Positions 2,112 through 36,856 of a stretch of DNA of 64,000 bases are shown here, one piece after another. Under the pieces are notes generated by a model, which saw only the letters and a program-made list of their open reading frames with translations, ran no database searches and was not told the DNA's origin. Made by a program: the position numbers and the translations under genes. Source of the DNA: Ascidia mentula (Eukaryota > Chordata > Ascidiacea > Phlebobranchia > Ascidiidae). Within the stretch, counting starts at the first letter, position 1. Each line of letters opens with the position of its first letter. Location of the stretch: assembly GCA_947561715.1 (NCBI GenBank), contig OX387203.1, forward strand, positions 1,426,001 through 1,490,000, read 5' to 3'.

Positions 2112-3415
2112 TCACACTTCCTTTTTGGATGCATGGACGTTTAGGGCCCCTCCAATAGTTCCGAAAAGGCCTCCGACCCAAGCGCTCCAGTATCCGTACC
2201 CGTACAGCTGTATTGTGGGTCCGAGTAGGGTTTGAGCAAGTGGTATTAGGTTGAGTAAAGTAGATGACAAACCAGTGTAAACTGCAACGGCCACCAGCGT
2301 AAGAATTGCTTAACAAATAACAGAATATCACGAAATGTCGTCCAAACAACTTTTTTTTGGTCAGAAGAGCATTAAATTATGGAGTATTATGCCTGGAAGC
2401 ATCAGCAACAAACTATTAAAATTGGATGTTTTATAGCTGGCTGCTAGTATTTATGTGTTTAAAATTAAAACACTGTCAACATAGCATCCTTAAAATGCTT
2501 TCACTTCTTAACAAAAATCCAACCAAGACTTGTGTTCAAACTAAATTAAAAGTAGTCGCTTTATTTTAGTAACAAACCGCCGGTGATAATGAGACCTCCA
2601 GAGATGTGCAGATGTTTTCTGTTTTTCTTTATTCCAGTGAAGGCAAGGATTATTCCCGGAAGAACCAGTGCCACGGCGAGTAACATTAAAGCAAGGGAGA
2701 TTATATTGACGAGCGGAAAAAAAGCTGAAAGGTATACGTAATAGTGTGTCACTTTACTTTCCCCTGCAAAGCTTTACCTAAATACAACCGAAAAGGGTAG
2801 AAATTAATTTCATACCTTTATGCAATCCGGTATATCGGATATTATTTTCTTGTTGGCAGCTTAAACAAAAACCTACTTTTTTTTTTGCACATATATTGCA
2901 TTGGTGTTTTGCTTTTAGCGCTATCGGTTACCAAGCAGATCCGTTTGGCCATAGTGCGCTCCACCGTGGTTCGTCTCTGTTGTTTAGTACTCAGTATAGG
3001 GTACCCAACAGATCGACGTTGACCGGACAGGTACCACAAAGTGGAATCTAGTGTGCCTGCTAGTGTAAAAGCTAGCACAGTGCCACTGCAACAGCTGCCC
3101 TGATGAGACCTCACAGGTCGAAACAGTGCGTGTACACACCCTGTCTGCAGCTTACCAATATAACCGAGTATTTTATTCAAATTTTAAATTCGACAAGGGC
3201 TGATAAAAATAATATGAAACATAACTTTTTTCGTTGTACTTACAAGCTGGGTAGACAAAGCATTTACTCTGTGCGTTGCAGGTGTAAAAGAGACCATCAT
3301 TGTTGCCAAAGTAACGGAACCAGCTTGGACTGAACGTAGATAGAAGTATGAGCAGAACTGAGAGGAGAGACAAAGCTGTTCCGGCAACAGTTATGCGCTC
3401 CACGTTGGCAAACAT
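2112..3415 (-). CDS. Claudin/PMP22-like four-helix membrane protein (gene A), complete
   Basis: Three exons, 3415-3244, 2724-2578 and 2308-2112, joined by phase-1 introns; 516 nt, 171 aa. Exon 1 encodes helix 1 and the first extracellular loop with the claudin-superfamily pattern W...GLF..C.....C (SPSW, then DGLFYTC, then SKC). Exon 2 encodes helix 2. Exon 3 encodes helices 3 and 4 and a short basic tail ending KKEV. Donors are GTAAGT and GTTTGT; acceptors are TTTCAG and TTGTTAAG. Members of this superfamily are tight-junction or four-helix membrane proteins; the exact role here is unknown. Intron 1 contains half of a hammerhead-bearing foldback element (3001-3165). This is the only complete copy of A: a second exon 1 at 15862-16033 is an orphan made by the tandem duplication. 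Confidence 0.75.
3001..3170. mobile_element. Half foldback element (right arm only) in intron 1 of gene A
   Basis: Matches the right arm of the complete elements at 15490-15779 and 28103-28397. It begins at the central loop and ends at the outer tip (GCTTACCAATAT). The left arm is absent; the sequence to its left (2881-3000) is unrelated. It is the left partner inferred for the unequal crossover that created the 12.6-kb duplication. Confidence 0.75.
3093..3152 (+). ncRNA. Type I hammerhead ribozyme, one stem-I mismatch
   Basis: Same layout as the ribozyme at 28329-28388: core CTGATGA at 3100-3106, stem II GACCT/AGGTC with loop CAC, GAAA, stem III ACAG/CTGT, GUC, then TGCAGCT. Position 3099 is C where the other two plus-strand copies have A, so the stem I pair next to the core is lost. 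It is antisense to gene A. Confidence 0.65.
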
Positions 3416-3747
3416 ATTGCAAGTATTTGATCTTCAATTCCCCTGTCTATAGCTTAGTACGAACACACAGTGCAGACAGTTGGGCAAAATGCACATAAAT
3501 TTGTTGTTAAAAATATTTAACAACAATAACGCAGCCACGCCTATTTCCTGAGCAAAACCCCGTCTTTGTTTCCGTTCTGTTTGCAATTGCGCGAAATCGC
3601 GTTTTTTCACGCCAGAAAATGCCACTAAAACATAACAAATGCTTGTGTGCAGTCTGCAACCTTGCTGTTAATGCTCCCTGTTATTAAAACCTTCTTAGCT
3701 ACTTCAGTCTCTTGAGTAGGGACGAACTATTCATTACACTTCCGCAA

Positions 3748-4010
3748 AAAATGTTTTTATAGTTGTTACACATTGTCAGACTAGACTAAAATTATAGTGA
3801 GCTGCAGACAGGGCCACTATTTCGACCTAATAGGTCTCATCATTGCAGCCAAGGTGCGACTTACATTGATCTAGTCAACTGAATAGCCGGCAAGTCACAC
3901 CATACTTTCACTGATGAGACCTATTAGGTCGAAACAGTGGCCCTGTATGCAGCTCACTATATTTTTATTCTATAGTCCGACAATGTGTAACAACTATAAA
4001 AACATTTTTT
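3748..4010. mobile_element. Foldback element, second hammerhead subfamily, downstream of gene B
   Basis: Long near-perfect inverted repeat. The outer arms read TTTTTATAGTTGTTACACA on the left and their complement on the right (TGTGTAACAACTATAAAAA). The inner arms carry GAGCTGCAGACAGGGCC and hammerhead cores. The loop is around 3850-3900. It starts about 160 bases past the stop of gene B and would lie in or near its 3' untranslated region. Confidence 0.8.
3800..3850 (-). ncRNA. Hammerhead ribozyme with C3 core substitution
   Basis: Read on the minus strand: stem I GGCTGCA pairs with TGCAGC after the cleavage site. The core is ATGATGA where consensus is CTGATGA, so invariant C3 is A. Stem II GACCT/AGGTC, GAAA, stem III ATAG/CTGT and GUC are all present. 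The core change predicts little or no catalysis. The opposite arm (core 3911-3917, plus) has an intact core but a poor stem I and GUA instead of GUC. Confidence 0.6.
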
Positions 4011-4172
4011 GGTCTATTGCTTATATGCACTGAAGTTAATTGCGAAATTATGATTCTACTGCATGACCGCGAAATAAAAGAAAACACTGTATGTAGCGAG
4101 TTATGTACAAGTGTGCAAAACCAATGCCCCTACATGTATATATTTACACACTTAAGCTTCGTAGAAAACGTG

Positions 4173-11960: not shown

Positions 11961-12668
11961 TAGATCTTTATGGGTCACCGATCACAGGAATAGTTGTTGG
12001 TAAAAATGCAAATCACTCAGTATGGGTATTAATGCTGTAGGCCTTTATAATATATAATATCACCGTCTGCAGTAGAATCGCAGCAAGTCGCATTGAGGAT
12101 GCACAAAACACACAGTTGTGTACGAGGAAATTACACTATAAACTATACATAGATAAACACACAATGTAAAAAATGTAAGCGGATATGCGCATATGTACTA
12201 TGGAGTGTGTAATATGGAATGGCAATTTATAAGTGCACGAAATATTTGTTTTTAGTTAGATATGATTTTTCGTTTTTGGAAACAGCATTATACCCTAAAC
12301 AAACAAACACTGGTAAAAACCATCAAACAACAAAATTAGTGAAGCTTTGCAAACAGTGAATATTTTACAGTTCTATGACAATTGCACAAAGTTATGAAAT
12401 ACTTCACAAACAATAAAAAAATTGCAAGAACGCTGTTATTTTTTCTGAAAATTAAGCTGCATTTCCATATGTACACACAAACTAAACTGCATTTGAAAAG
12501 CGAACATAGAAGTATTCAATACATTACAACTCACTTAATATTTGTGCTATTAAAATGATAACATTTTACAAGAATTATAACAAGGTTTTTGTTCGTTTTG
12601 TAGTACATCATTTGTTTTTTTTCATTGAACAGTTGGAAACTTGGGTCAATCACTTCTAGCCACCAGGC

Positions 12669-13716: not shown

Positions 13717-15326
13717 CGTCCAGTTGACTTACAAAATTCTGTAGACAAAACGTTTTATGCGAAGTGCAGTTGCTTTGAAAAAACACAAACAACTTTCACA
13801 CTGAATTTACTTGGAAGGAAGTAGGGAGGCACGCTTCAACCCAAAACTAAAAACGCATGGTGCCAATTTCCGCACGTGATTTGATGTCAAAGGCACATGA
13901 TTTCTTACAACGGTTTTTTACGGAATTATAATTAAATTCAAGGCCCGAAAAATCGTCACACCAACAGCGGGAAAGATTTACCACAGGTTAGAAACAACAG
14001 GTTCAATTTAAAAGGTGCGAGATTATTTTGATCTTTAACCCCACCTAATGTTATGTGTAAGAATAGTAAATTGATTTAAGATTGACACTATAGGGCGCTG
14101 TTTTGCAAATATATCTTGCGGTAACTTGGAGCTAAACTGGATTCGTTTGCGCCACCCAAGTTGTTACATTTTTAGTCCGACCTTTTTCATGTAATACGCA
14201 ACAGTGCTTTATGCGCATACGGACCTGTTCGAGAATGACTATCTGAACCAGCTTTCTATTCTGCTCTTATCATATGGTTACAATGACAGCAGAATTTATG
14301 TCCTAATTTAACATATTTCAAAGCGTTTTTTCATTGATAATTGTTAATTAAGGCAGATATTCTAACCCCCTCACAGACGGGCAATCGGGATTTCCCCGTT
14401 GCATGCGTGGCTACTTTAACTTACGTTTTTATGTACTAAGAGCATATTGTCGTTTGCGGTATTTACTTGAAGACGGTGAATTTCGACACTTTAGGATGTG
14501 TGTAGCATTGCCGAAGCACGTGGTGAACGAAACAAGGGTTTCGTTTGAGTAAGTTCTTTCGCTTGTTTTTAAAATACCTCTGTGCAATGCCTTGCTATTT
14601 CAGCTGCCGTCCGTGAGGTTCGTTTGAGTATCTACCGTTGATTAATGTGCCGAAGCACACACTTTGAAAACCCTGTTACAGCACAATATATATATAATCA
14701 AAAGGCACTTGCCATATTCCGCTTAGCAACTTAGTGATGGCTCTTGTGTTTAAATTTGAACGTCCACAGGAAACGAAAACATTGTTCTAATTCCAATACA
14801 TCACGTTATAATTCCTTATGTTTATTCAATAAAGAGAATTATCCACAAGATAAAATTTAAGTGTTTTGCATTGGCGTCACGCTGTTGCCGTAGCGTATAG
14901 TCCATAAAGAATCAAAATGCGGTTGGATAATTTGCGCGTGGTGCTTGTGACGTCGGTATTGGCTCCTATTTTCGATTGTTTCGTGACAATGCATGGGGCG
15001 GAAATGATATTTGTGATGTCATTTTGCCTCTTGTTGCGCGTACTTGTATTGTGATTTTTTTGTGTGGAAAATTTGTGCTGTTTGTCGTATTGTTTTCTAT
15101 TACCTTGTGTCGTAGAGGGACAGAAATTTGAGCGTCATTTAAACGAAGTTATGGGAAGACTATATTTGAAGTTTAGCAGCCATGCTTTCAAATAAAAAAC
15201 TATTGGCGCGACCAACGCATACTACTTCGTTCAGTCATTCTATGATGAAAACAGCTGTGTTTGCTTTGGGTTTTTTAATAAAAACACACTAATTTTGTTC
15301 TTGAAATTCGCAGAAAGGAAATCGTA
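13717..15326. other. Spacer between genes E and F
   Basis: Divergent spacer: E is on the minus strand and F on the plus strand, so it should hold both promoters. The first 270 bp align with the region upstream of D. No gene, RNA or clear repeat recognised in the remainder. Confidence 0.5.
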
Positions 15327-15480
15327 ATGGAAAGAAAACATGTCGTCAGTTTTTTGCTGGGCAGTCTCACAATCGTATGTGTTTTAATTTCCCTATTCTC
15401 CCCTGCTTGGTTGTTGAATGATTCGATCCAAACAGGTCTTGTTATTGTCTGTGAAGATGGGAATTGTACCAATATCAAAG
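15327..15480 (+). pseudogene. Orphan exon 1 of claudin-like gene F
   Basis: Identical to exon 1 of the complete F gene (27945-28098): start codon, helix 1, SPAW, TGLVIVC, NC and the donor at AAAG. Exons 2-4 are missing. After the hybrid foldback element the sequence switches to intron 1 of gene A on the other strand. With no downstream acceptor it can give only a truncated product that reads into the foldback and stops at 15684-15686. Its promoter region is fully duplicated and may still be active. Confidence 0.85.
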
Positions 15481-15497
15481 GTATAATAATATTGGCA

Positions 15498-15555
15498 AGC
15501 TGCAGACAGGGTGTACACGCACTGTTTCGACCTGTGAGGTCTCATCAGTACAGCT
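15498..15555 (-). ncRNA. Type I hammerhead ribozyme, left arm of hybrid element
   Basis: Identical to 28116-28173: stem I AGCTGTA/TGCAGCT with one G-U, core CTGATGA, stem II GACCT/AGGTC, GAAA, stem III ACAG/CTGT and GUC. All conserved core bases are present. Confidence 0.75.
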
Positions 15556-15710
15556 CTTGCAGTGGCACTGTGCTAGCAGGCACACTAGATTCCACTTTGT
15601 GGTACCTGTCCGGTCAACGTACCCAACAGATCGACGTTGACCGGACAGGTACCACAAAGTGGAATCTAGTGTGCCTGCTAGTGTAAAAGCTAGCACAGTG
15701 CCACTGCAAC

Positions 15711-15770
15711 AGCTGCACTGATGAGACCTCACAGGTCGAAACAGTGCGTGTACACACCCTGTCTGCAGCT
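15711..15770 (+). ncRNA. Type I hammerhead ribozyme, right arm of hybrid element
   Basis: Stem I AGCTGCA (15711-15717) pairs perfectly with TGCAGCT (15764-15770). Core CTGATGA 15718-15724; stem II GACCT/AGGTC with loop CAC; GAAA 15738-15741; stem III ACAG/CTGT; predicted cleavage after C15763. The duplication crossover lies inside this ribozyme. Confidence 0.8.
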
Positions 15771-15861
15771 TACCAATATAACCGAGTATTTTATTCAAAT
15801 TTTAAATTCGACAAGGGCTGATAAAAATAATATGAAACATAACTTTTTTCGTTGTACTTAC

Positions 15862-16033
15862 AAGCTGGGTAGACAAAGCATTTACTCTGTGCGTTGCAGG
15901 TGTAAAAGAGACCATCATTGTTGCCAAAGTAACGGAACCAGCTTGGACTGAACGTAGATAGAAGTATGAGCAGAACTGAGAGGAGAGACAAAGCTGTTCC
16001 GGCAACAGTTATGCGCTCCACGTTGGCAAACAT
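15862..16033 (-). pseudogene. Orphan exon 1 of claudin-like gene A
   Basis: Identical to gene A exon 1 (3244-3415), with its start codon and GTAAGT donor. Exons 2 and 3 lie only upstream of the first unit. What follows here is the hybrid foldback and then F exon 1 on the opposite strand, so the gene is cut off by the duplication breakpoint. Confidence 0.85.
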
Positions 16034-16365
16034 ATTGCAAGTATTTGATCTTCAATTCCCCTGTCTATAGCTTAGTACGAACACACAGTGCAGACAGTTG
16101 GGCAAAATGCACATAAATTTGTTGTTAAAAATATTTAACAACAATAACGCAGCCACGCCTATTTCCTGAGCAAAACCCCGTCTTTGTTTCCGTTCTGTTT
16201 GCAATTGCGCGAAATCGCGTTTTTTCACGCCAGAAAATGCCACTAAAACATAACAAATGCTTGTGTGCAGTCTGCAACCTTGCTGTTAATGCTCCCTGTT
16301 ATTAAAACCTTCTTAGCTACTTCAGTCTCTTGAGTAGGGACGAACTATTCATTACACTTCCGCAA

Positions 16366-16628
16366 AAAATGTTTTTATAGTTGTTACACATTGTCAGACT
16401 AGACTAAAATTATAGTGAGCTGCAGACAGGGCCACTATTTCGACCTAATAGGTCTCATCATTGCAGCCAAGGTGCGACTTACATTGATCTAGTCAACTGA
16501 ATAGCCGGCAAGTCACACCATACTTTCACTGATGAGACCTATTAGGTCGAAACAGTGGCCCTGTATGCAGCTCACTATATTTTTATTCTATAGTCCGACA
16601 ATGTGTAACAACTATAAAAACATTTTTT
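16366..16628. mobile_element. Foldback element with hammerhead cores, unit 2 copy (3' of B')
   Basis: Identical copy of 3748-4010. Minus-strand ribozyme with the C3 change at 16418-16468. Confidence 0.75.
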
Positions 16629-16790
16629 GGTCTATTGCTTATATGCACTGAAGTTAATTGCGAAATTATGATTCTACTGCATGACCGCGAAATAAAAGAA
16701 AACACTGTATGTAGCGAGTTATGTACAAGTGTGCAAAACCAATGCCCCTACATGTATATATTTACACACTTAAGCTTCGTAGAAAACGTG

Positions 16791-18354
16791 TTAAACATTT
16801 GTAGATCCTGGCTCTTCAGCTTTTGGAGATTCCGCATCCGTTTTGGGTGGTTCTTCTTCTGTTTTAGGTGGTGGTTGAGCAGTGTGACCTGCTGCATCAT
16901 GGTTGACCGACCCACCTATTATCCCCAGTGTGGCACCAATCCACGTCAGCCAGTAGTTGTATCCGTGAAGGAATCCGGTGCCGACCAACGCGAAAAAGCC
17001 GGTGTAAATGGCAAGTCCAATAATTGCTGACACGCCTGAGAATAAAATAAAAACCCGACTCGGTCATAAATTCGGCGGAAAATAATGGTTGTCTTAACGT
17101 GAATTACTGTCACTACCTAGACACATATAGGAATAACCGTTTTCAAAAATAAGTAAGCTGTCGCCTGACGCATTTCTATTAGCGAAAATATTAACCTTAA
17201 CATTTTTAATAGGGTCTTTTTTAGCACATACGATGTACGAAAAAAAGGCAAATCTTAAGTGTGAATTCACTGATCGAACAAGGCAACCTTTTTCATGTAC
17301 GTGAGTATCGTTAAATAAAGTCCAGTCCTCTTTTTTGTAGCTTATTCAAAAACAACGAACTTTGTTGTACCTCGAAAAGCATGCAGTTTATATTTTGTGG
17401 CAATTTTCGATAAGTTTAAGGAATTATGCAAAAAATACTGAAAATCATTTTTGCCACGCCAAATATGAATGTTTCCACCAAACTCGGTAACATTATTTCA
17501 CCAGCTATGCAGAGATCTAACCTCCTCCAATGAACAAACCCCCTGACGTTTTAAGATGTTTCGGGTTTCCTCTGCATCCCATGAATGCAAGCACTACCCC
17601 AGGGATCATCAGAACCAAAGCAACCAGCATGAACACAAGCGGGATGATGGTAACGAAGCTCCTAACTGAAGGTAAAGGCATAACTCACCGTAACTTTGGA
17701 TACAGGTATGATTTCTGATTATTCACATATAAAGTTAATGAATAATTCATGTTTAATCAAAATAATACACGAACAACTATTATTTGTACGCCGAAACAAA
17801 ACTGTTGTTTAGAAAATGAATAAAAAAATACACGCAAGTCGTAAAATGCCTGGGCTGCGATGTCGATACGATAGCTGTGATCGCCAAGTAAGGACCTGCG
17901 CAGTGTGGCGATCTTGCCAATCATGCGATTGCATGAAACATTACTGCGTTGTAAGTGCTTTACAACTTTACATAAGAAACCTAAAGCCAAGATGCTGGAC
18001 ATGTCAAAAAAATGAAATTTTAGTATGAAATTCTGTTCAATCAGCACACTTAAAACACAGTAAATTACTGTGTGTGTACCGGTTGCAAACCAACATACTT
18101 TTGTTAGTTGGAACAGTCCACAATTGTACAGCAACATTTTGCAACAGGTTCACCTACATAGCTGTTGAATAAGTTAATTGTCCAGAAAGTATGTGTCATT
18201 GCGACTTACGATAAACGATGCACGATCGGTTGGGTGGGCACTGGTAAAAAAGTCCGTATCCAGACCGTGGCCAACCAGGGGTGAACGTTGTCACCAGTAA
18301 AACCACAATTGATATGCATGAAATTACCGTCCCAGCAATATGATGCTCTTCCAT
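16791..18354 (-). CDS. Claudin-like gene B', identical copy of B
   Basis: Exons 18354-18210, 17665-17522 and 17035-16791; the same 177-aa product as gene B, including the PDZ-ligand-like STNV end. Its upstream region is duplicated intact, so it should be as active as B unless the second unit is an assembly artefact. Confidence 0.75.
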
Positions 18355-19128
18355 TTCGACTGATTGATGGAAAGTTCCTTTTTATTTACCTAGTCGTAAA
18401 AACTAGTTTTGCAGAAAAAGGTTATTCAAGACTTCGTACCTTATTTTCAAGTACTGCAATTGTAATAATTACATCCTCAAACAAATTTTATCAATCGGTT
18501 TTAAAATCACTGACCACACCATAACCATTGCCTGCTACTACATAGCTTAGTATCAAATAAGCGATGAGAACAACACATTTAAATTTTTAACCATGGTCCT
18601 ATCATGACAATGTAGTTGATGCGTTTATTTTAGATTTTTTGTTAAGTCATGACACGATCTTGTATTATGTTTGCTGTTTATTTAGTCGCGTTTCTGCGAG
18701 TCTTCAACACACGATGTTGTAAATTTTGTGTGATAATTAGGTCGTGGTTTAGTTGTATTAAAGTTATTCGTCTCGTATGAATCTTTTTGCACTAGTTTCT
18801 TGTCAACCATTTCTTCGCTTTAACAGCACGTAATTGAAAAGAAAAGACATTGCCCAATGAAGGTGTTTATTTTTAAACATCTCAACACTTTGAATATGTT
18901 GAACATAACATGCATATATCGAAGCAGTATCGGTAGAACAAATTTTCAAACAAGTACAACATTCTTCACTTTTGCTGACATCCACCAAAAAGAACTAACG
19001 ATGTAGTTCAGAACGATATCACGTTGGCTATAACGTTAGGAAGTCGTATTAATGATCACCGCAAGCCATATTCATTGACTGCATGCGAAAACGAAAAAAA
19101 TTAGCAAAGCGATGACGTTTAGTGTTGT

Positions 19129-19363
19129 TATACATTGTCAGAGTAGACTAAAATTATAGTGAGCTGCAGACAGGGCCACTATTTCGACCTAATAGGTCTC
19201 ATCATTGCAGCCATGGTGCGACTTACATTGATCTAGTCAACTGAATAGCCGGCAAGTCACACCATACTTTCACTGATGAGACCTATTAGGTCGAAATAGT
19301 GGCCCTGTCTGCAGCTCACTATATTTTTATTCTATAGTCTGACAATGTGTAACAACTATAAAA
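19129..19363. mobile_element. Foldback element with hammerhead cores, unit 2 copy (3' of C')
   Basis: Identical copy of 6511-6745. Minus-strand ribozyme with the C3 change at 19162-19212; plus-strand core at 19273-19279. Confidence 0.75.
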
Positions 19364-19534
19364 ACATTTTTTGGTCTATTGCTTATATGCACTGAAGTTA
19401 ATTGCGAAATTATGATTCTACTGCATGACCGCGAAATAAAAGAAAACACTGTATGTAGCGAGTTATGTACAAGTGTGCAAAACCAATGCCCCTACATGTA
19501 TATATTTACACACTTAAGCTTCGTAGAAAACGTT

Positions 19535-20849
19535 TTAAACATTTGTAGATCCTGGCTCTTCAGCTTTTGGAGATTCCGCATCCGTTTTGGGTGGTTCTTC
19601 TTCTGTTTTAGGTGGTGGTTGAGCGGTGTGACCTGCTGCACTGATGTTGACCGACCCACCTATTATTCCCAGTATGGCACCAATCCACGCTAGCCAGTAG
19701 CTGTATCCGTCAAGAAATAGATAGACAAAATACCCGAACGTGATGAAGCCCGAGAAAATAGCAGCTGCAATAAAGGCTGACACACCTAAGAATAAAATAA
19801 AAACCCGACTCAGTTATAAGTTCGGCAAAAAATAATGGCTCTTAACGTAAATTACTGTCACTACCTAGACACATATAGCAATAACCGTTTTCAAAAATAA
19901 GTAAACTGTCGCCGGATGCATTTCTATTGGCGAAAATATTAACCTTGACGTTGTTTAAAGAAGGTCTTTTTGAGCACATACGATGTACGAAAAAAAGGCA
20001 AATCTTAAGTGTGAATTCACTGATCAAACAGGGCAACCTTTTTCATGTACGTGAGTATCGTTAAATAAAGTGCAGTCCGCTTTTTTGTAGCTTATTCTAA
20101 AGCAACAAACTTTGTTGTACCTCGAAAAGCATGCAGTTTATATTTTGTGGCTATTTTCGATAAGTTTAAGGAATTATACAAAAAAATGAAATACATCTTC
20201 GCCACGCCAAATATGAATGTTTCCACCAAACTCGGTAACATTATTTCACCAGCTATGCAGAGAGCTAACCTCCTCCAATGAACAAACCCCCTGACGTTCT
20301 GAGATGTTTCGGGTTTCCTCTGCATCCCATGAATGCAAGCACTATCCCAGGAATCATCAGAACCAAAGCAACACACATGAACACAAGCGGTATAATGAAA
20401 ATGAAGCTCCCATCTGGATCTAAAGGCATAAAATTAACTCACCGTTACTTCGAGTACAGGTAAGATTTTTGATTATTCAAAGTTTTTGAATAGTTTACGT
20501 TTAATCGAAATAGTACACGAACAATTATTGTTTGTAGGCCAAAACAAAATGTTTGTTTAGAAAATGCACAAAAAAGTCAACAATTGTACAACAACATTTT
20601 GCACACCTAATTAGCTGTGAACAAGTTGTCCAGAAAGTATGTGTTTTTAAATTGATTAAATTGTATCGATCGGTTGCTGTTCTGTAAAAATCACTGCGAC
20701 TTACTAAAAACGGTGCACGGTTTGTTGGGTTGGCACTGGTAAAAAAGTCCGAATCGGGACCGTAACCAACCAGGGGTGAATGTGGAAACCAGTAAAAACA
20801 CAATTGATATGCATGAAATTACCGTCCCAGCAACATGGTGCTTTTCCAT
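19535..20849 (-). CDS. Claudin-like gene C', identical copy of C
   Basis: Exons 20849-20705, 20413-20270 and 19785-19535; the same 179-aa product as gene C. Confidence 0.75.
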
Positions 20850-21991
20850 TTCGACTGATTGATGGAAAGTTCTTTTTTATTTACCTTATCGTAAAAAAAA
20901 TTTTCTGCATAAAAAGCAATTATAGATTTTACGCTTTATTTTAAAGTACTGTACATCCTCAACACAATTCAAACGGGCTTAAAACTCACTGACCACACCA
21001 ATGCCTGCTACTACATAGCTTAGTATCAAATGAGCGATGAGAATGACACAATCAAATTTTTCACCAATGTCCTATCATATATGTCATTTGTATTGACATT
21101 GTGGTTGATGCGTTTATTTTAGATTAAAGTCATGACACGATCTTGTATTGCGTGTGCTGTGTATTTGGCAACCATCAGTATGCTGCAATTATTTAGTGCC
21201 CATACATCAATATTTCTTCATGTATTTTCTTTCGTTCCTTAGTTCAGACTTTGGTTTTGGGCTATTTGTGCAGGAAATAAGCGCTTCAAAAAATCATAAA
21301 GTAGAATAAAATAGCCTTTGTGTATGTGAGTTTAAGTTGGTTTGATATAAGTATTTAAGATTTTCACTCGGCCTGAAATTTTCTGTGTCGCCTGCAGACA
21401 GTCTTGGGTTATTTATATAATATGCGCAACCTAACAAAGGTGCTTGTCACTACGACAACATAACAAATGCAATGCATTCTGTGGGCGGTTCCTGTCTTTC
21501 TGACCACTCCCCCAAAACTCCCCTTATTTGGTTTCAGCAATCAATCACTCATAAACGATACTATAAAGTTCGCAAATAAACTTCGTGACTTAACAAACAA
21601 CCGTAGAGCAATGACAAACGTTTCTGCGACCGACGTCATAATGCAAGGGCGGACGCTTCACGTATAATAGGATTTGTTTTTGTATTACGTCATAATGAAA
21701 TGTTGTCACATGATGTGTGTTGCAACAAAGAGATAGATCACATGAATTTAATTCAATTATCTCAAATAAGAACTTGAACGCATGAGAACAAAAACACACA
21801 AATCATAATGATATTGGGCACAGCTAAAAACACCTTCAAAACCATAACGGGAGGCGCTTATGTTTAAGGTGATATCACCATTTGCAGTAAGTCGCACTGC
21901 AAGTGCACAAAACACACAGTTGTATGCGAGGCAATAACACTTTTAAACTATAGGTAGAAGAACAAACAATGTAAGAAATGTAAGCGGATAT

Positions 21992-22094
21992 TAATCAGAA
22001 TTGCTCTTCTGGCACTTAGTTTCTAACGTGTTTATTGGAAACCAACGTTTCGTCTGCCATCCGGCGAGACTTCTTCAGGGTTAAAAAATAGCAG
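21992..22094 (-). mobile_element. Penelope-like fragment, unit 2 copy
   Basis: Identical copy of 9374-9476 with the same TAAGCGGATAT flanking repeats. Confidence 0.65.
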
Positions 22095-22643
22095 TAAGCG
22101 GATATGACCATATGGACTATATTGAGTGTGTAATATGGAATGGCAATATATAAGTGAACGAAATCAATTTTTTTGACAAATAATCCTTGAAGGTTATTTT
22201 CTAAAACTATTTGTTATTTTTGTGTTTCAAGTGATATAGAACAATATTACTTAGATAGGATTATTGTTTTGTTTTTGGATTATTATAGACTTTATAGACT
22301 AAACAAACAAACACTGGTAAAAACTATCAAGCAACAAAGTTAGTGAAATTTTGCAAACAGTGAATATTTTACAGTTCTATGACAATTGCACAAAGTTATG
22401 AAATACTTTACAAACAATAAAAAAATTGCAAGAACGCTGTTATTTTTTGGAAAATTATACTGCATTTCCATATGAAGACACAAACAAAACTGCATTTGAA
22501 AAGTGAACATAGAAGTATTCAGTGCATGACAACTCACTTACTATTTGTGCTATCAAAATTATAACAAGTTTTTTGTTCGTTTTATTGTACATTATTTGTC
22601 TTTTTCGTTGGACACTTGGGTCAATGACTTCTGACCACCAGGC

Positions 22644-23684
22644 TTAAATGGCTGTAAAACAAAGGTAGTTGTTAAACTGAATATAACATTGTCAAATTTT
22701 TTATTGTCCAAGGCATGTTATAATATGATTAGTACACCAAAATGTAATGTAACTTGGGTACAATTTTAATGAAACTTCCATTGCCGGTCTAATTTCTAAA
22801 AACTAGCTTTGTGAACATTAAAATAAGTACGCTTAAAGAAAAAATTGATAAAAAACATTTTACATACCCTGGTAGCTACCAAATGTTGATGACCTACACA
22901 TGCTCAATCCGGCTGTGACAAAAGTAACAATGATACCAACACAACATAATCCGAAACTGTAGCCAATGGATTTTTCAACTTGAATTTTTGAATAAAAAAC
23001 AATGAACAAAGCTGTTCCAATGGAAGAAAACAGTGCTGCAAATATGTTAAGAATAATGGCCAATTTGTGTAAATGTTTGACATTTTGACGACCACTGTAC
23101 AAAAATAAATTTGTACAAAACAAGTGCTGTACTTAAAATAAGTGAATTCACTCAAGTGAAAATTTTATTTGTTATGGGTGAATAAAAGAACTTGAATGCA
23201 AGCTGCTGTCAGATGGCCACTGTTTTGAATTATAGGTGCAGCTCAATGTGACTCTTTTAGATGATCTAATTCTGACCAGTAAAATTCTCGGCAAGTTAAT
23301 TTGGTAAATCTTTTATACAAACCTGCCAAGATTAGTACAATTGCAGACCTCTTGACTGTGGAAGCATTTTTCCGAGCTACTCCAAACACATACATACAAG
23401 TTGCTATGATAACCATTGCAGCGGATATTGCTTGACATGAAAGTGTGGCTTTTAAATAAGAAGAGCTTTCTGAATAAAAACAGTCAAGTAAAATCTTGTA
23501 TTAAAGATTAATGATACTTAATACCTATATGTGTGGTGCAAAATCCAAGAGCACATTCCTGGTACAGACCAGCGTGAAAATCAAGATAGCCCAAGTAATA
23601 CCAGCATGGTGAAAACAGTGCAGTCACAGTTAGCCCCAAGGATAAAAAAACCCCAATTGTAATTAACAACCAACTAACATCCAT
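22644..23684 (-). CDS. Claudin-like gene D', identical copy of D
   Basis: Exons 23684-23525, 23469-23323, 23035-22868 and 22651-22644; the same 160-aa product as gene D and the same uncertainty at the C-terminus. Confidence 0.7.
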
Positions 23685-24017
23685 TGTTCAGTTGACTTAC
23701 AAAATTCTGTAGACAAAACGTATTATACAAAGTGCAGTTGCTTCGAAAGAACACAAACAACTTTCACACTGAATTTACTTGGAAGGAAGTGATGAGGCAC
23801 GCTTTAACCGAAAACTAAAACGCATCGTGCCAATTTCCGCACGTGATTTCATGCCAAAGGCACATGATTTCCTGGAGGACTTACAACAGTTTTTTACAGA
23901 GTTATAATTAGATTTAAGATCCAAAAAATCGTCACACCAGGAACGGGAAAGATTTAGCATACGTTGGAAACAACAGGTTAAATTTAAATACCGCATATCC
24001 GTATTTCTGTTAAAACA

Positions 24018-24578
24018 GTTTCGCCCGCGGGGAATGCCCGTCCTCTGGTCATAAAGAAACTCGGTGATGCATTGGGGTCAATTTTAGGGTTGAATGAGCA
24101 GGGAGTCGCGTGCTGTTGCCGGGTCGATTTTCAGCGTGTTTGGTGTAGCTTTAGTGCATTTTTTGCCCTCCTTAGTCAGTCAGTCATTTGGTGCCTGGTG
24201 CTGTAAAAAAGTTAGTTGAAAAAGCATCAAAATGTTCATAGCCCAAAATTGAATCACAGAAGTAGATCTTAATTTGTAATTTTATGTTAGGCCCACCTCT
24301 TGTCTACGCATTCAGGTCAAAATTAGTTGCAGGATAGTTGCTTAAAGTGCCCCTGGTCGGACATTATTTTAGCTCATCCAATTTGCAGCTTATATTGGTC
24401 CCAACCCTTTTCTACGCGTTGGCAAAAAAATTGTCACAGGAAAGTTGCTTTGGTTGCCCCCTGGGACTGTTTTTGCTATCCTATAGGACAAAAGATCCTC
24501 CTGGAGGCTCCTCAGATCCTTGCTGTGTTTTGGCGGATGCAGCTGCAATCAATTTTTTTTCTCTTTAATTAGTTCCAG
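24018..24578. repeat. Dispersed repeat, unit 2 copy of 11400-11960
   Basis: Identical copy carried by the segmental duplication. Confidence 0.6.
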
Positions 24579-25286
24579 TAGATCTTTATGGGTCACCGAT
24601 CACAGGAATAGTTGTTGGTAAAAATGCAAATCACTCAGTATGGGTATTAATGCTGTAGGCCTTTATAATATATAATATCACCGTCTGCAGTAGAATCGCA
24701 GCAAGTCGCATTGAGGATGCACAAAACACACAGTTGTGTACGAGGAAATTACACTATAAACTATACATAGATAAACACACAATGTAAAAAATGTAAGCGG
24801 ATATGCGCATATGTACTATGGAGTGTGTAATATGGAATGGCAATTTATAAGTGCACGAAATATTTGTTTTTAGTTAGATATGATTTTTCGTTTTTGGAAA
24901 CAGCATTATACCCTAAACAAACAAACACTGGTAAAAACCATCAAACAACAAAATTAGTGAAGCTTTGCAAACAGTGAATATTTTACAGTTCTATGACAAT
25001 TGCACAAAGTTATGAAATACTTCACAAACAATAAAAAAATTGCAAGAACGCTGTTATTTTTTCTGAAAATTAAGCTGCATTTCCATATGTACACACAAAC
25101 TAAACTGCATTTGAAAAGCGAACATAGAAGTATTCAATACATTACAACTCACTTAATATTTGTGCTATTAAAATGATAACATTTTACAAGAATTATAACA
25201 AGGTTTTTGTTCGTTTTGTAGTACATCATTTGTTTTTTTTCATTGAACAGTTGGAAACTTGGGTCAATCACTTCTAGCCACCAGGC

Positions 25287-26334
25287 TTAAATGGCTGTGA
25301 AACAAAGGCTTTTATTAAACTGAATATAACATTGTCAATTTTTTCTTGACCAAGGAATGTTATAATGTGATTAGTACACCAAAATGTAATGCAACTTGGG
25401 TACAATTCTAATAAAACTTCCATTGCCGGTGTAATTTCTAAAAACAAGCTTTGTGAACATTAACCTTAATTGGCTTCAATAAAAAAATTGATAAAAAAAC
25501 ATCTGACATACCCTGGTAGCCACCAAATGTTGATGACCATCGCCTACACATGCTCAATCCGGCTGTGACAAAAGTAACAATGATCCCACCACAACATAAC
25601 CCAAAACTGTAGCCAATGGATTTTTCAACTTGAATTTTTGAATAAAAAACAATGAACCAAGCTGTTCCAGCGGAAGAAAACAGTGCTGCAAATATGTTAA
25701 GAATAATGCCCAATTTGTGTAAATGTTTGACATTTTGACGGCCATTGTACAAAAATTAATTTGTACAAAACAAGTGCTCTACTTAACATAAGTGAATTCA
25801 CTCAAGTGAAAATTTTATTTGTTATGGGTGAATAAAAGAACTGTAATGCAAGCTGCAGCCAGATGGCCACTGTTTTGAATTACCAGTGCAGCTCAGTGTG
25901 ACTCTTTTAGATCATCTAATTCTGACCAGCCAAATTCTCAGCAAGTTAATTTGGTAAATCTTTTATACAAACCTGCCGAGATTAATACATTTGCAGACCC
26001 CTTGACTGTGAAAGCATTTTTCCGAACTACTCCAAATACATACATACAAGTTGCTATGATAACCATTGCAGCAGATATTGCTTGACATGAAAGTGTGGCT
26101 TTTACATAAGGAGAGCTTCCTGAAAGAAAACAGTCAAGTAAAATCATGTATTAAAGTTTAATGATACTTTATACCTATATGTGTGGTACAAAGTCCAAGA
26201 GCACATTCCTGGTACAAGCCAGCGTGAAAATCAAGATAGTCCAAGTAATACCAGCATGGTGAAAACAGTGCAGTCTCGGTCAACCCCAAGGATAAAATAA
26301 AACCGCTTCCAATTAACAACGAAGCAACATCCAT
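25287..26334 (-). CDS. Claudin-like gene E', identical copy of E
   Basis: Exons 26334-26175, 26119-25973, 25685-25512 and 25294-25287; the same 162-aa product as gene E. Confidence 0.7.
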
Positions 26335-27944
26335 CGTCCAGTTGACTTACAAAATTCTGTAGACAAAACGTTTTATGCGAAGTGCAGTTGCTTTGAAAAA
26401 ACACAAACAACTTTCACACTGAATTTACTTGGAAGGAAGTAGGGAGGCACGCTTCAACCCAAAACTAAAAACGCATGGTGCCAATTTCCGCACGTGATTT
26501 GATGTCAAAGGCACATGATTTCTTACAACGGTTTTTTACGGAATTATAATTAAATTCAAGGCCCGAAAAATCGTCACACCAACAGCGGGAAAGATTTACC
26601 ACAGGTTAGAAACAACAGGTTCAATTTAAAAGGTGCGAGATTATTTTGATCTTTAACCCCACCTAATGTTATGTGTAAGAATAGTAAATTGATTTAAGAT
26701 TGACACTATAGGGCGCTGTTTTGCAAATATATCTTGCGGTAACTTGGAGCTAAACTGGATTCGTTTGCGCCACCCAAGTTGTTACATTTTTAGTCCGACC
26801 TTTTTCATGTAATACGCAACAGTGCTTTATGCGCATACGGACCTGTTCGAGAATGACTATCTGAACCAGCTTTCTATTCTGCTCTTATCATATGGTTACA
26901 ATGACAGCAGAATTTATGTCCTAATTTAACATATTTCAAAGCGTTTTTTCATTGATAATTGTTAATTAAGGCAGATATTCTAACCCCCTCACAGACGGGC
27001 AATCGGGATTTCCCCGTTGCATGCGTGGCTACTTTAACTTACGTTTTTATGTACTAAGAGCATATTGTCGTTTGCGGTATTTACTTGAAGACGGTGAATT
27101 TCGACACTTTAGGATGTGTGTAGCATTGCCGAAGCACGTGGTGAACGAAACAAGGGTTTCGTTTGAGTAAGTTCTTTCGCTTGTTTTTAAAATACCTCTG
27201 TGCAATGCCTTGCTATTTCAGCTGCCGTCCGTGAGGTTCGTTTGAGTATCTACCGTTGATTAATGTGCCGAAGCACACACTTTGAAAACCCTGTTACAGC
27301 ACAATATATATATAATCAAAAGGCACTTGCCATATTCCGCTTAGCAACTTAGTGATGGCTCTTGTGTTTAAATTTGAACGTCCACAGGAAACGAAAACAT
27401 TGTTCTAATTCCAATACATCACGTTATAATTCCTTATGTTTATTCAATAAAGAGAATTATCCACAAGATAAAATTTAAGTGTTTTGCATTGGCGTCACGC
27501 TGTTGCCGTAGCGTATAGTCCATAAAGAATCAAAATGCGGTTGGATAATTTGCGCGTGGTGCTTGTGACGTCGGTATTGGCTCCTATTTTCGATTGTTTC
27601 GTGACAATGCATGGGGCGGAAATGATATTTGTGATGTCATTTTGCCTCTTGTTGCGCGTACTTGTATTGTGATTTTTTTGTGTGGAAAATTTGTGCTGTT
27701 TGTCGTATTGTTTTCTATTACCTTGTGTCGTAGAGGGACAGAAATTTGAGCGTCATTTAAACGAAGTTATGGGAAGACTATATTTGAAGTTTAGCAGCCA
27801 TGCTTTCAAATAAAAAACTATTGGCGCGACCAACGCATACTACTTCGTTCAGTCATTCTATGATGAAAACAGCTGTGTTTGCTTTGGGTTTTTTAATAAA
27901 AACACACTAATTTTGTTCTTGAAATTCGCAGAAAGGAAATCGTA

Positions 27945-29146
27945 ATGGAAAGAAAACATGTCGTCAGTTTTTTGCTGGGCAGTCTCACAATCGTATGTGT
28001 TTTAATTTCCCTATTCTCCCCTGCTTGGTTGTTGAATGATTCGATCCAAACAGGTCTTGTTATTGTCTGTGAAGATGGGAATTGTACCAATATCAAAGGT
28101 ATAATAATATTGGCAAGCTGCAGACAGGGTGTACACGCACTGTTTCGACCTGTGAGGTCTCATCAGTACAGCTCTTGCAGTGGCACTGTGCTAGCAGGCA
28201 CACTAGATTCCACTTTGTGGTACCTGTCCGGTCAACGTACCCAACAGATCGACGTTGACCGGACAGGTACCACAAAGTGGAATCTAGTGTGCCTGCTAGT
28301 GTAAAAGCTAGCACAGTGCCACTGCAACAGCTGCACTGATGAGACCTCACAGGTCGAAACAGTGCATGTTCACATCCTGTCTGCAGCTTGCCAATATCAA
28401 AGGTATGTATTAACTTTATGTTTAATTTTCTGATCGTTTAAAACCACATTTGCTCTTGGTCGAATCGCTTTTTTATGTCAAACGTTATTTGCAGTGTATC
28501 CTTGGAAAGCGGTGCTTGCCCTTGTGTTCTTATGTATTTCTTTGCTGGGTAGCATGGCTGGATTTGCTTTATGGATCATAGCGATGGTTAAAACCTTCAA
28601 CGAAACGAAAGTGTATTTGCTAGTATCGACTATCGTCCACTTCGTTACAGGTGAAGTTCTGGTTTATTTTATTGTTATTTTAAATCACCCTTAAACCAGT
28701 GGTTTGTGAAGTTTTTCGTATGCGACGCCTTTGGATGTTTCGCTACGTTGTTCCAGTATAGGCTGACTTTTACTTTGTTATTTCCTTGCATTTTTCCAAT
28801 AAATTTATTGATATGTTGATACGCGACTCCCTTGGAAACTTAAAGCGAGCATATTTTAATTATCATTTTGGGGCTTTTTTGTCGAAGTCAACGTTAAAAG
28901 CAAATCATTATACGTTTCAGCGTTCCTGTGTATTGTGGCGGGTGGAATATTCCTGTCACCGCAGGATATAAGGATGGGAATCACATTTGGTTACAGTTTC
29001 GCTTTCGCCTGGCTCGCTGCTTTGTTTTCAATGCTTTGCGGCTTGTGGAATACGAAAGTTGCCGAAGGGAGAAACTGCTGCGATACATGGCTGCGTAAGT
29101 TATTACTAAAAAGCTGATATTTACTTTCATAGATTATTTTTACTAG
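27945..29146 (+). CDS. Claudin/PMP22-like four-helix membrane protein (gene F), complete
   Basis: Exons 27945-28098, 28495-28650, 28921-29094 and 29133-29146; phase-1 introns; 498 nt, 165 aa. Exon 1: MERKHVVSF, helix 1, SPAW, TGLVIVC and NC. Exon 2: helix 2. Exon 3: helices 3-4. Exon 4: five codons ending HYFY. It is the only plus-strand member and diverges from the A-E block. An acceptor-like TTGAAATTCGCAG ends 16 bases before the start codon; in tunicates this would fit a spliced-leader site, but it could also be an ordinary 5' intron. A hammerhead foldback element sits at the exon 1 donor and displaces the original GTATGT by about 300 bases. If the small last exon is skipped, the frame continues six codons past 29094. 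Confidence 0.75.
28116..28173 (-). ncRNA. Type I hammerhead ribozyme, left arm
   Basis: Minus strand: AGCTGTA (28173-28167), core CTGATGA (28166-28160), stem II GACCT/AGGTC with loop CAC, GAAA (28146-28143), stem III ACAG/CTGT, C17 at 28123, then TGCAGCT (28122-28116). Stem I is 7 bp with one G-U. All invariant core bases are present. Confidence 0.75.
28329..28388 (+). ncRNA. Type I hammerhead ribozyme, right arm, sense to gene F intron 1
   Basis: Stem I AGCTGCA (28329-28335) pairs perfectly with TGCAGCT (28382-28388). Core CTGATGA 28336-28342; stem II GACCT (28343-28347)/AGGTC (28351-28355); GAAA 28356-28359; stem III ACAG/CTGT (28377-28380); predicted cleavage after C28381. As part of F intron 1 it could cut the pre-mRNA, unless the palindrome folds as a plain hairpin instead. 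Confidence 0.8.
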
Positions 29147-34754: not shown

Positions 34755-36856
34755 TTAAGGGGGCAAAATTGGATTCTTGACCATTTCATTCTGATGTGGT
34801 AAAGGCTGATTTATTGCTTCCTGTTTTAAAACAAAGATTAATTCTGTTTTCTCGCAAGCTGTTAAACTTATATCAAATTAATTTAGCTTTAATTGCAGAA
34901 ACAAACTGTGAATTCCACTTACTGTATTCTGATGAATCGTTGCTGGATTTTGAGAACTTTGCTGCAGGTTGAACTGGTTAGCTGGTATATACTGGTAAAA
35001 TAAAGTTTTGTTACCTATTGTTTTAAATTTGTTGGTCCAAGTTGTGCTTAATTAGTTGCAAGATATTATACATTATTTTGTGAATCAGATAAACATTGCT
35101 CTAAACCACATCATTCTTTACCTGCACTTGGATGGGTGCTCCTTGATTCAATCCAAAATATCCTGGGTAGGGAGTAAAGTATAATGGTATTCGATTGTGC
35201 TGTATGCTCATGGTTTAAACGTTTATCAATGTTGATTTTCCTTACCAGCATTCATTGCTTGGTTTGGGATTGTAAACACTTGTGTGGCTGACCTTGATTT
35301 GACATTATCACTGTTTGCTGCAGATAACAAAGTACTTCAATGTATTAATCCTTATATTGTGTTTATCCTTGTGCAGTAAGTTAAGTTTACGTACCGTAGT
35401 GACAGTGCTTTTTCCACAGTTGCAGCACAGCAGTAGGATGAATGTACAATAGAAACAATAAGTTCAGTGAATCCAATGAAAGCAAGTATACTGTGTATGG
35501 CAATTACACTGTTCTGCAAGCACAATTTTCAATTTTTTTTGAATAATGATGTGCACACTAATATATTTTTTGTAAAATGTTTTGCCAACTAAAAAATTAT
35601 TTAATCCAGATAAAAAAGAATTCTACAACTATTGATTTTGTATGGACTTCTTTAGGGTTATGTTTGGTGTTTCTGTAAAGGTGGCATGATATAACTTTAC
35701 GATAGTGATTGTACCAGTTCGTTGCAATCATAGCGGCAGTAATGACGATTATTAGAAGCATCTGTGGCAGCAATTATTTCCAAAGTTATCATTGTACAGG
35801 ATGCAAGTGCAGCGAAAATTGCCATAACCATTCCACCAGTTATCTAGCAATATAATAATATGCACTTGGTTTAGAGCATATATAGCTTGTTTCAAAATTC
35901 GTTGTTAGGAATTCTTATAGACTACTGTATAATTAAAATACAACTAACATACAACTTTGCTACCAACCATGCAGCTTGATGGACTTTTTGATGATGCAAC
36001 CCCAAGAACTCCAGCAGACAAAATCCAATTTTAGATTAATTTAAAACTTAAGGCCTTGCATATTTTTTGTGCAAATAATTGTACTGACATGGGATTTAAG
36101 GAACTTTTAACTACTATCCATAGGATTCACAGTACTTAATCAACTATAGATGTCAAAAGCACACTATGAGCACTTGTGTGAAGTTGAAACAACTCTATTT
36201 AATACTCACAAGAGCTCCACACCAAATTCCATCTGATATATATGCCAAGCCATAGTAGTAGTAAGAAGTTGATGTTGTTCCCATTATCAACATAGATACT
36301 GCCAATACAATTGAAGCAAGTCCAAAAATGATCTGAGCGACCTAAAAGTAATTTTTTTATGACTCAGCAAATAAGATTAATATGTGTTTAGGCTATATTG
36401 TTAAGATAAACAAATCAGATTTATGATAAGCAAAGCGGAGCCCATAATATGAATTGTGTAAGCTGCATAAAGATGATCACTGTTTTGACCTGTAGTGCAG
36501 CTAGTGTGACTATCAGACAACTTGGCAGACCAAACCTCCAAGCCTTCCACTTTGTGGTGACTATACAATCACCGTCATCCATTGGATACCAAATTAGGTG
36601 GTTGGCAGTTTGGTCAGCAAAGTCGTTTGATAGTCACACCAGCTGCACTGATGAGACTTTATAGGTCAAAACAGTGGCCATCTGTATCAAGCTTATACAA
36701 ATAAGATTTATTTTGAAACAATATTGATAATACACTCCTGTTAAAACTTACACCAAGAGTTTTGAAAGTGTTTGCATATCTTGCTCCTGACAATCCACCT
36801 GCATAGATTAATTGAGGCCCACAGCAACCACCAGAACAACAACCATCTGAAGTCAT
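34755..36856 (-). pseudogene. MS4A-like gene H, decayed
   Basis: Exon remnants: 36856-36752, 36341-36210, 36024-35968, 35843-35715, 35513-35395, 35317-35246, about 35167-35120, 34991-34923 and 34820-34755. Lesions by comparison with L: the exon 3 acceptor AG is GG; exon 5 has lost one base (119 nt against 120); exon 6 has gained two bases (72 against 70); and the exon 7 acceptor region is deleted. Exons 1, 2, 4, 8 and 9 remain open and are clearly MS4A-like (VAQIIFG, GIWCGAL, ITGGMVMAIFAAL). Several independent lesions make a sequencing error unlikely. Confidence 0.8.
36457..36697. mobile_element. Decayed hammerhead foldback in intron 1 of pseudogene H
   Basis: Imperfect inverted repeat with tips AGCTGCATAAAG and CTTTATA/AAGCTTAT-like ends. 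The plus-strand core keeps CTGATGA and a stem II, but GAAA is AAAA. The left-arm core has lost CTGATGA. It still shares the AGCTGCACTGATGAGAC block with the F element. Confidence 0.6.

What the first reader, a model, noticed from the sequence alone, without database searches (positions are those of the whole stretch)
28103..28397. Foldback transposon carrying a complete type I hammerhead ribozyme in each arm
Both arms, read outward from the centre, contain every invariant hammerhead base (CTGATGA, GAAA, GUC), a 5-bp stem II, a 4-bp stem III and a 7-bp stem I. Stem I pairs sequence upstream of the core with the element tip downstream of the cleavage site. Right arm: 28329-28388, cleavage after 28381. 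Left arm, minus strand: 28116-28173, cleavage after 28123. The two convergent ribozymes sit at the tips, so transcripts of either strand could trim themselves about 16 nt from the end. A perfect palindrome also competes with ribozyme folding, so activity may depend on co-transcriptional folding. Hammerheads are known in Penelope-like elements, retrozymes and satellites; two in a MITE-like foldback is an arrangement I do not recognise as described.
Basis: partly seen in the sequence, partly recalled or inferred. Interest (0 to 1): 0.9.

Follow-up and report, generated by a model that had tools for sequence, protein, structure and literature searches.

The report
Head-to-head hammerhead retrozyme insertion
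The supposed foldback transposon is two outward-facing, shortened copies of a small ribozyme-carrying retroelement (a retrozyme) that landed together in one insertion, and relatives examined in the same genome bear insertion marks like those of Penelope-type elements, which bears on the open question of what moves retrozymes in animals.

Summary
The sequence observation is correct: both arms hold a complete type I hammerhead motif. The interpretation changes. The arms belong to a 291-nt family; a 28-nt core pattern has 2,549 near-matches in this 196-Mb genome (control 0). Examined copies are single 5'-truncated units, tandems and foldbacks: a metazoan-type non-LTR retrozyme, not a foldback DNA transposon. 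3' ends fall in two zones past the cleavage site (4-22 and 36-55 nt), 5' ends vary, and 9-16 bp direct repeats flank 25 of 50 insertions tested. All 20 independent foldbacks examined are head-to-head; 19 of 20 end once in each zone. The window copy is the exception (both near). GIY-YIG elements of the same genome, read as Penelope-like (their reverse transcriptase was not shown), match: 17 of 17 inverted neighbour pairs head-to-head, 8 of 8 examined insertions with a tail at one end only, and a hammerhead core upstream in 18 of 18 flank loci. Published Penelope work describes this signature. Best explanation: Penelope-type machinery copied retrozyme RNA from both cut target strands, a link the papers I read only propose. 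Cleavage and RNA were not testable.

The parts
28087..28102 (.). left target-site duplication CCAATATCAAAGGTAT (9 bp certain, up to 16 bp with 7-nt overlap with the retrozyme end)
28103..28238 (-). left arm: retrozyme unit from about u20-22 back to u162, inverted
   Evidence: outer end read by eye (BLAST edge u28)
28115..28174 (-). type I hammerhead motif, left arm; cleavage between 28123 and 28122
28237..28397 (+). right arm: retrozyme unit u147 to u9-16, sense
28239..28251 (.). 13-nt loop at the centre, at the junction of the two copies
   Evidence: (inverted repeat I2)
28329..28388 (+). type I hammerhead motif, right arm; cleavage after 28381
28391..28406 (.). right target-site duplication
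2880..3161 (+). sister copy A: single, nearly full-length unit (u26 round to u16)
15485..15779 (.). hybrid copy: left side as the element at 28103, right side as copy A; start set from the 12,618-bp shift
3745..4011 (.). divergent second hammerhead foldback (5-nt loop III), also head-to-head; related copies at 6500-6755, 16363-16629 and 19118-19373

Best explanation
The element is a metazoan-type non-LTR retrozyme insertion. SHOWN by sequence: a 291-nt family with one type I hammerhead per unit, in single, tandem and head-to-head copies, flanking direct repeats, ragged 5' ends and two 3' end zones just downstream of the hammerhead; GIY-YIG elements of the same genome with the same insertion anatomy. 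INFERRED: transcripts of tandem units cut themselves at the hammerhead and become monomeric or circular RNA; a Penelope-like (PLE) protein cuts both target strands about 9-16 bp apart, starts reverse transcription inside the retrozyme RNA at two adjacent sites, extends both target strands, and the two incomplete cDNAs are joined, giving two outward-facing ribozyme arms around one junction. If only one strand's cDNA survives, a single 5'-truncated unit results; if the enzyme goes round a circle or along a multimer, a tandem. The window copy is such a two-sided product (left arm u20-22 to u162, right arm u147 to u9-16). The ribozymes serve RNA processing before insertion; their mirror arrangement afterwards is a by-product.
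For: Family: 2,549 matches with up to 3 mismatches to a 28-nt core pattern, reversed-pattern control 0. Forms: 90 loci stitched into 56 segments hold 63 clusters, 26 head-to-head, 26 single, 11 tandem, 0 tail-to-tail; 20 head-to-head cases remain after dropping 6 that share flanks. Neighbours within 1.2 kb among the 88 exact core matches: 13 -/+, 1 -/-, 0 +/- (these overlap the 26 and include duplicated loci). Ends: of 33 single or tandem clusters in the end table, 14 end at u4-22, 16 at u36-55, 3 could not be read; 5' ends are spread. 19 of 20 foldbacks have one end in each zone (about 2e-5 if ends were independent). Direct repeats of at least 9 bp at 14 of 20 foldbacks and 25 of 50 insertions tested, against 24 of 970 mismatched flank pairings. 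GIY-YIG elements: 121 matches scored give 17 -/+, 5 +/+, 1 -/-, 0 +/- neighbour pairs within 6 kb; in 8 of 8 head-to-head insertions fetched (of 17), one end only carries a 23-42 nt tail, with 11-14 bp direct repeats (one repeat read by eye); 18 of 18 flank loci have a hammerhead core 64-83 nt before the first end site, with four different but paired stem II sequences. Published: a PLE protein cuts and extends both strands and starts at two adjacent internal sites, tail called unique to PLEs (PMC11167929, parts 1-3 of 4 read); inverted pLTRs with a 31-bp tail on one of them (PMC3846280, passages). Arms of one foldback differ by 3.1% on average (n=15), swapped arms by 5.0%, 0 of 2,000 permutations as low.
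Against: The window copy is the one foldback of 20 without a tail; its arms differ by 4 substitutions and 2 gaps in 132 aligned nt. A dropped locus, C1:25503768, has a tail at both ends. The loci are top-scoring ones, not a random sample of the 2,549. Only 11 of 30 single or tandem insertions had a repeat of 9 bp or more. That the GIY-YIG elements are PLEs rests on GIY-YIG domain, frames up to 892 aa, tandem steps, hammerheads and the insertion anatomy itself; a reverse transcriptase search scored 150 of 1,254 candidates and none of the listed places lies in the GIY-YIG elements used here, so their reverse transcriptase is not shown. No partner element was identified by shared sequence. No RNA or cleavage data. 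Rfam scores are below cut-off, and neither window arm alone is predicted to prefer the hammerhead fold, although the family 60-mer does.
Confidence: 0.82

Rival explanations
1. LINE machinery inserted the retrozyme, and the foldbacks are ordinary twin-priming inversions (inverted 5' part, sense 3' part).
For: Twin priming also gives head-to-head order with target duplications (recalled). Many reverse transcriptase genes exist in the genome (150 scored of 1,254 candidates; which of them are LINEs was not tested).
Against: In twin priming the inverted part starts at a variable internal position (recalled); here the outer ends of both arms lie within u6-u48 of 291 in 20 of 20 foldbacks, in two zones about 27 nt apart, and the GIY-YIG elements of the same genome show the same.
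Confidence: 0.09
2. Snap-back self-priming: one cDNA folds on itself and copies itself, giving an inverted repeat, as proposed for rotifer PLEs on an antisense template (PMC3846280).
For: In the window copy the inner ends nearly coincide (u162 and u147, 13-nt loop). Proposed in print for palindromic junctions of PLEs (passage).
Against: Simple self-copying would end both arms at the same unit position; 19 of 20 retrozyme foldbacks and 8 of 8 GIY-YIG foldbacks end at different ones. Inner ends of most others lie far apart (e.g. u126/u4, u78/u255, u135/u238).
Confidence: 0.05
3. A foldback or MITE-like DNA transposon that carries a ribozyme in each arm and moves as a unit.
For: Inverted arms and a flanking direct repeat.
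Against: Single and tandem units are as common as foldbacks in the sample; no two of the 20 independent foldbacks share both inner ends; 5' truncation; direct repeats of varying length.
Confidence: 0.03
4. Inverted pairs made by recombination or by insertion of one retrozyme into another.
For: Recombination between copies does happen: the 12.6-kb duplication in the window.
Against: 0 of 26 head-to-tail-reversed (tail-to-tail) clusters and 0 among 14 neighbour pairs; a direct repeat of at least 9 bp flanks the whole foldback in 14 of 20.
Confidence: 0.01

Closest known systems
Metazoan non-LTR retrozymes (Cervera and de la Pena 2020, PMC7229834; parts 1-3 of 6 and passages read)
   Same: 170-400 nt unit (291 here), type I hammerhead, G+C below 50%, dimers to multimers, target duplications longer than 4 bp, coexistence with elements that carry minimal hammerheads
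   Different: The words inverted, foldback and twin do not occur there; circRNA and cleavage shown there, not tested here; PLE mobilisation is only proposed there
Endonuclease-bearing Penelope-like elements (PMC3846280 passages; PMC11167929 parts 1-3 of 4)
   Same: Head-to-head inverted copies, tail on one end, target duplications, hammerhead near the cDNA start
   Different: The retrozyme unit is far shorter than any coding element; its near end zone lies about 38 nt after the GAAA box, against 64-83 nt in the GIY-YIG elements here; it has a 4-bp stem III with a long loop
Amphibian satellite hammerheads (as described in PMC7229834)
   Same: Type I hammerhead with a weak stem III in tandem units; loop III here often holds a palindrome (GUGUACAC or GGCC; read)
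   Different: Stem III has 4 bp here; whether dimers are needed is unknown

Membership tests
Type I hammerhead ribozyme | All core bases, three stems, open stem I | tested here: met
   the family 60-mer has the hammerhead as minimum-energy fold, the two window arms alone do not
Type I hammerhead ribozyme | Rfam covariance score over the curated cut-off (a library criterion, not a structural one) | tested here: not met
   best 25.6 bits against 56.3 and 24.1 against 48.5
Type I hammerhead ribozyme | Core and stems kept while loops vary | tested here: inconclusive
   102 copies, 65 distinct rows chosen by similarity; mean departure core 0.05, stem II 0.03, loop II 0.12, stem I 5' strand 0.11; loop III 5-21 nt with CAG kept in 63 of 65
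Type I hammerhead ribozyme | Self-cleavage | not testable with these tools
   needs in vitro transcription
Metazoan non-LTR retrozyme | Unit of 170-400 nt with one type I hammerhead, G+C below 50% | tested here: met
   291 nt, 47.8% G+C
Metazoan non-LTR retrozyme | Tandem copies, dimers to multimers | tested here: met
   11 clusters with 300 or more aligned nt in one orientation; C70:2551301-2554838 with seven full minus units and four full plus units
Metazoan non-LTR retrozyme | Target duplications longer than 4 bp | tested here: met
   9-16 bp in 25 of 50 insertions tested, null 24 of 970
Metazoan non-LTR retrozyme | Abundant linear and circular RNA | not testable with these tools
   no RNA data; the predicted circle is 68% paired, z -3.8 against 100 shuffles
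PLE-made insertion | Two adjacent internal cDNA start sites (optional tail) | tested here: met
   two 3' end zones about 27 nt apart
PLE-made insertion | Head-to-head copies from both target strands | tested here: met
   20 of 20 independent foldbacks; GIY-YIG elements 17 of 17 inverted pairs
PLE-made insertion | Tail on one of the two inverted ends | tested here: met
   19 of 20 foldbacks; the window copy itself lacks it
PLE-made insertion | A PLE of the genome with reverse transcriptase, shown as partner | tested here: inconclusive
   GIY-YIG elements found; no listed RVT_1 place lies in those used (150 of 1,254 candidates scored); no shared sequence sought systematically
Foldback or MITE-like DNA transposon | Same inverted unit at unrelated sites with constant ends | tested here: not met
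   on the sample of 20 independent foldbacks

The most novel reading that the evidence does not exclude
Each two-sided insertion uses both start sites of the RNA, each once: one target strand is extended from the near site and the other from the far site of (probably the same) retrozyme RNA or circle, by a coupled pair of Penelope-type reverse transcriptases. Retrozymes would then be the minimal natural substrate of that machinery (a hammerhead plus a short start region), and the one-tail rule a footprint of a dimeric complex working on one RNA.
Probability: 0.45. Interest if true: 0.75.

Novelty: new variant of a known kind. Interest (0 to 1): 0.6.

Why it matters
What moves retrozymes in animal genomes is open: the 2020 paper names LINEs or PLEs, with PLEs as a strong candidate (PMC7229834, passages), and a 2022 curation guide says they 'may rely on PLEs' (PMC8969392, passages). 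The end zones, the one-tail rule and the head-to-head order found here tie retrozymes to GIY-YIG elements by insertion anatomy and make the link directly testable with a purified protein and a 291-nt RNA. The same data favour two-strand priming over self-priming as the source of such foldbacks.

Tried and rejected
Foldback as a mobile unit: C72:4628630/4628827 has the same 197-nt core spacing as the window copy, but its sequence (L094) is a different, more complex rearrangement. A shared stem-loop at the cDNA start: the retrozyme zones lie on either side of a predicted internal loop, but the four GIY-YIG 3' regions do not fold alike, so no claim. Reverse transcriptase in the GIY-YIG elements: not shown by the capped search. 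Exon peptide beside the element: no Pfam match. Host identity: not established; COX1 was located but not fetched, and a paper search for the assembly size found 0 papers. A genome-wide count of hammerhead cores with free stem II did not complete. Literature: the searches listed no paper that I could see to describe head-to-head retrozymes; this rests on listings, and on passages or parts of the papers cited; the library lacks most subscription papers, and Craig 2021 is not held.

What was dropped before counts: six of 26 head-to-head clusters, C71:1439988 (hybrid of the window copy), C70:4555870, C70:15074378, C2:15898672, C1:25445974 (shared flanks) and C1:25503768 (shared right flank, tails at both ends). 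Independence of the other 20 was judged by flanks only. Single and tandem rows were not freed of duplicated loci. 13 of 63 clusters were left out of the direct-repeat test. The outer end of the window copy's left arm and of one arm of C67:19741683 were corrected by eye. The 8 GIY-YIG insertions were picked by hand from the 17 pairs.

Full report
OBSERVATION. Right arm, plus strand 28329-28388: stem I AGCTGCA/TGCAGCT, CTGATGA, stem II GACCT-CAC-AGGTC, GAAA, stem III CAG/CTG plus the closing A-U pair, GTC, cleavage after 28381. Left arm, minus strand 28115-28174, the same with one G-U pair. A strict descriptor has 4 hits in the window and 0 in 60 Markov windows. Rfam matches are below the curated cut-offs (0; E 0.012-0.13 for both arms in 701 nt), so the case rests on the family data below.

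WHAT IT BELONGS TO. The window lies in an unnamed 196-Mb genome (G000, 79 contigs). A 28-nt core pattern with up to 3 mismatches has 1,290 + 1,259 = 2,549 matches, against 0 for the reversed pattern. Searches with an arm and with a 291-nt unit and reading of 30 loci show a basic unit of 291 nt, 47.8% G+C, with one hammerhead, and copies that are single, in direct tandem at 291-nt steps (e.g. C72:13402533-13403114, C70:2551301 onward) or foldbacks. Size, composition, type I hammerhead, tandem habit and direct repeats agree with metazoan non-LTR retrozymes (PMC7229834, parts 1-3 of 6).

RIBOZYME SUPPORT. Among 102 copies (65 distinct rows) chosen by similarity, mean departure from the reference base is 0.05 in the core, 0.03 in stem II and 0.12 in loop II, all three inside the selecting pattern, and 0.11 in the 5' strand of stem I, outside it; loop III is 5 to 21 nt long while CAG is kept in 63 of 65. 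The variable stem I strand is a point against, the varying loops a point for. The family 60-mer has the hammerhead as its minimum-energy fold (-19.2 kcal/mol); the bare hammerhead of the two window arms is 3-4 kcal/mol above another hairpin, and the whole element prefers one long hairpin (-252 kcal/mol). The window arms may thus be weak ribozymes even if the family is active. Not tested.

INSERTION ANATOMY. 90 loci stitched into 56 segments hold 63 clusters: 26 head-to-head, 26 single (four are fragments of 20-36 nt), 11 with 300 or more nt in one orientation, none tail-to-tail. With u1 the first base after the cleavage site, the 3' ends of single and tandem clusters fall at u4-22 (14 of 33) or u36-55 (16 of 33; 3 unreadable), while 5' ends are spread over the unit. 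Twenty foldbacks are independent by their flanks. In all 20 both outer ends are such 3' ends, and in 19 one lies in each zone; the window copy has both in the near zone (u20-22 and u9-16). If ends were independent, 19 or more of 20 has probability about 2e-5. Inner ends differ from case to case. Direct repeats of at least 9 bp flank 14 of 20 foldbacks and 11 of 30 other insertions, against 24 of 970 mismatched pairings. The window foldback as a whole has one, CCAATATCAAAGGTAT. In the complete list of 88 exact core matches, neighbours within 1.2 kb are 13 -/+, 1 -/-, 0 +/-; the list includes duplicated loci.

SAME SIGNATURE IN GIY-YIG ELEMENTS. A search for the GIY-YIG domain gave 121 matches (150 of 382 candidates scored). 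Neighbours within 6 kb: 17 -/+, 5 +/+, 1 -/-, 0 +/-, including an array of two minus and three plus units at a 2,870-bp step. For 8 of the 17 head-to-head pairs, picked by hand before their sequence was seen apart from one inner stretch, I fetched both outer ends. In 8 of 8 the arms agree up to one site, one of them and never both carries 23-42 nt more, and an 11-14 bp direct repeat flanks the whole (that of L108/L109 was read by eye because local repeats hid it). All 18 flank loci carry a hammerhead core with a paired stem II, in four different sequences, 64-83 nt before the first end site; the same scan finds 12 in 567,294 nt of the other loci, retrozyme cores left out. In the retrozyme the distance is about 38 nt. 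I read these as Penelope-like elements from domain, long frames (up to 892 aa), tandem steps and hammerheads; a reverse transcriptase search listed 150 of 1,254 candidates and none in the elements used, so that part is not shown, and the insertion anatomy is itself part of the reading.

HOW IT WORKS. The anole PLE protein cuts and extends both target strands and starts reverse transcription at two adjacent internal sites, which explains the optional 30-40 nt tail (PMC11167929). Rotifer PLEs are bounded by inverted pLTRs with a 31-bp tail on one of them and short target duplications (PMC3846280, passages). The retrozyme family shows these marks. The simplest account is that a PLE protein used retrozyme RNA in place of its own, extended both target strands, and the two cDNAs were joined. 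Shown: family, end zones, order, direct repeats, the parallel. Inferred: ribozyme cutting, circular RNA, the enzyme, the joining. Arms of one foldback differ by 3.1% on average, swapped arms by 5.0% (0 of 2,000 permutations as low; n = 15 with 50 or more aligned bases), which fits one RNA or one source per event; differences in age between loci could add to it.

AGAINST. The window copy lacks the tail and its arms differ by 4 substitutions and 2 gaps in 132 nt, so it could come from two RNAs. One dropped locus has two tails. The sample is of close relatives. LINE twin priming would give the same order but not two fixed start zones; snap-back copying would give equal ends; neither fits well. 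No partner element was identified.

KNOWN AND NEW. Retrozymes are known; head-to-head PLE insertions with a tail are known. In the searches named under Tried and rejected I found no account of head-to-head retrozymes, and PLE mobilisation is stated as a strong candidate or a possibility. I file the element as a new variant of a known kind whose anatomy makes an open question testable.

SURROUNDINGS. Window 3001-15779 and 15619-28397 are 99.96% identical: a 12.6-kb tandem duplication whose ends lie inside copy A (2880-3161) and the element at 28103, with a hybrid of the two between them. Unequal crossing-over between two retrozymes would leave this. The element sits at a likely exon-intron border: an open frame from 27945 runs to AAAG|GTATGT in the duplicated target, so a splice donor is present on both sides of the insertion.

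Noticed in passing
window 3001-15779 and 15619-28397: 12.6-kb tandem duplication at 99.96% identity with breakpoints inside two retrozymes and a hybrid retrozyme between the copies, as after a recent unequal crossing-over.
   Followed up: partly
window 27945-28406: Likely first exon of a small membrane protein (52 residues) ends at the insertion; the target duplication copies the splice donor (AAAG|GTAT). The two putative exons joined gave no Pfam match.
   Followed up: partly
window 3745-4011, 6500-6755, 16363-16629, 19118-19373: Second, divergent hammerhead foldback (5-nt loop III, stem II GACCT-ATT-AGGTC), also head-to-head, at the edge of a 1.46-kb repeat; core damaged in the left arm.
   Followed up: partly
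window 36637-36676: Lone degenerate hammerhead of another subfamily, with GAAA changed to AAAA.
   Followed up: no
window 57361-60352: Complex tandem array with periods of 128, 180, 308 and 488 bp.
   Followed up: no
G000:C70:2551301-2554838: Large head-to-head array, seven full minus units followed by four full plus units of a 92%-identical subfamily, with partial units at the centre.
   Followed up: no
L091-L109 (GIY-YIG element flanks): After GAAA the cores read GCTT, GCTC, CGTC or CGTT, so the one possible stem III pair switches between G-C and C-G across families with no loop between; passages describe minimal PLE hammerheads that may cut as dimers.
   Followed up: no
G000:C1:25431431, 25445974, 25503768: Three copies of one foldback within about 75 kb with the same right flank, one with a different left flank and tail, perhaps another case of recombination between retrozymes.
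   Followed up: no
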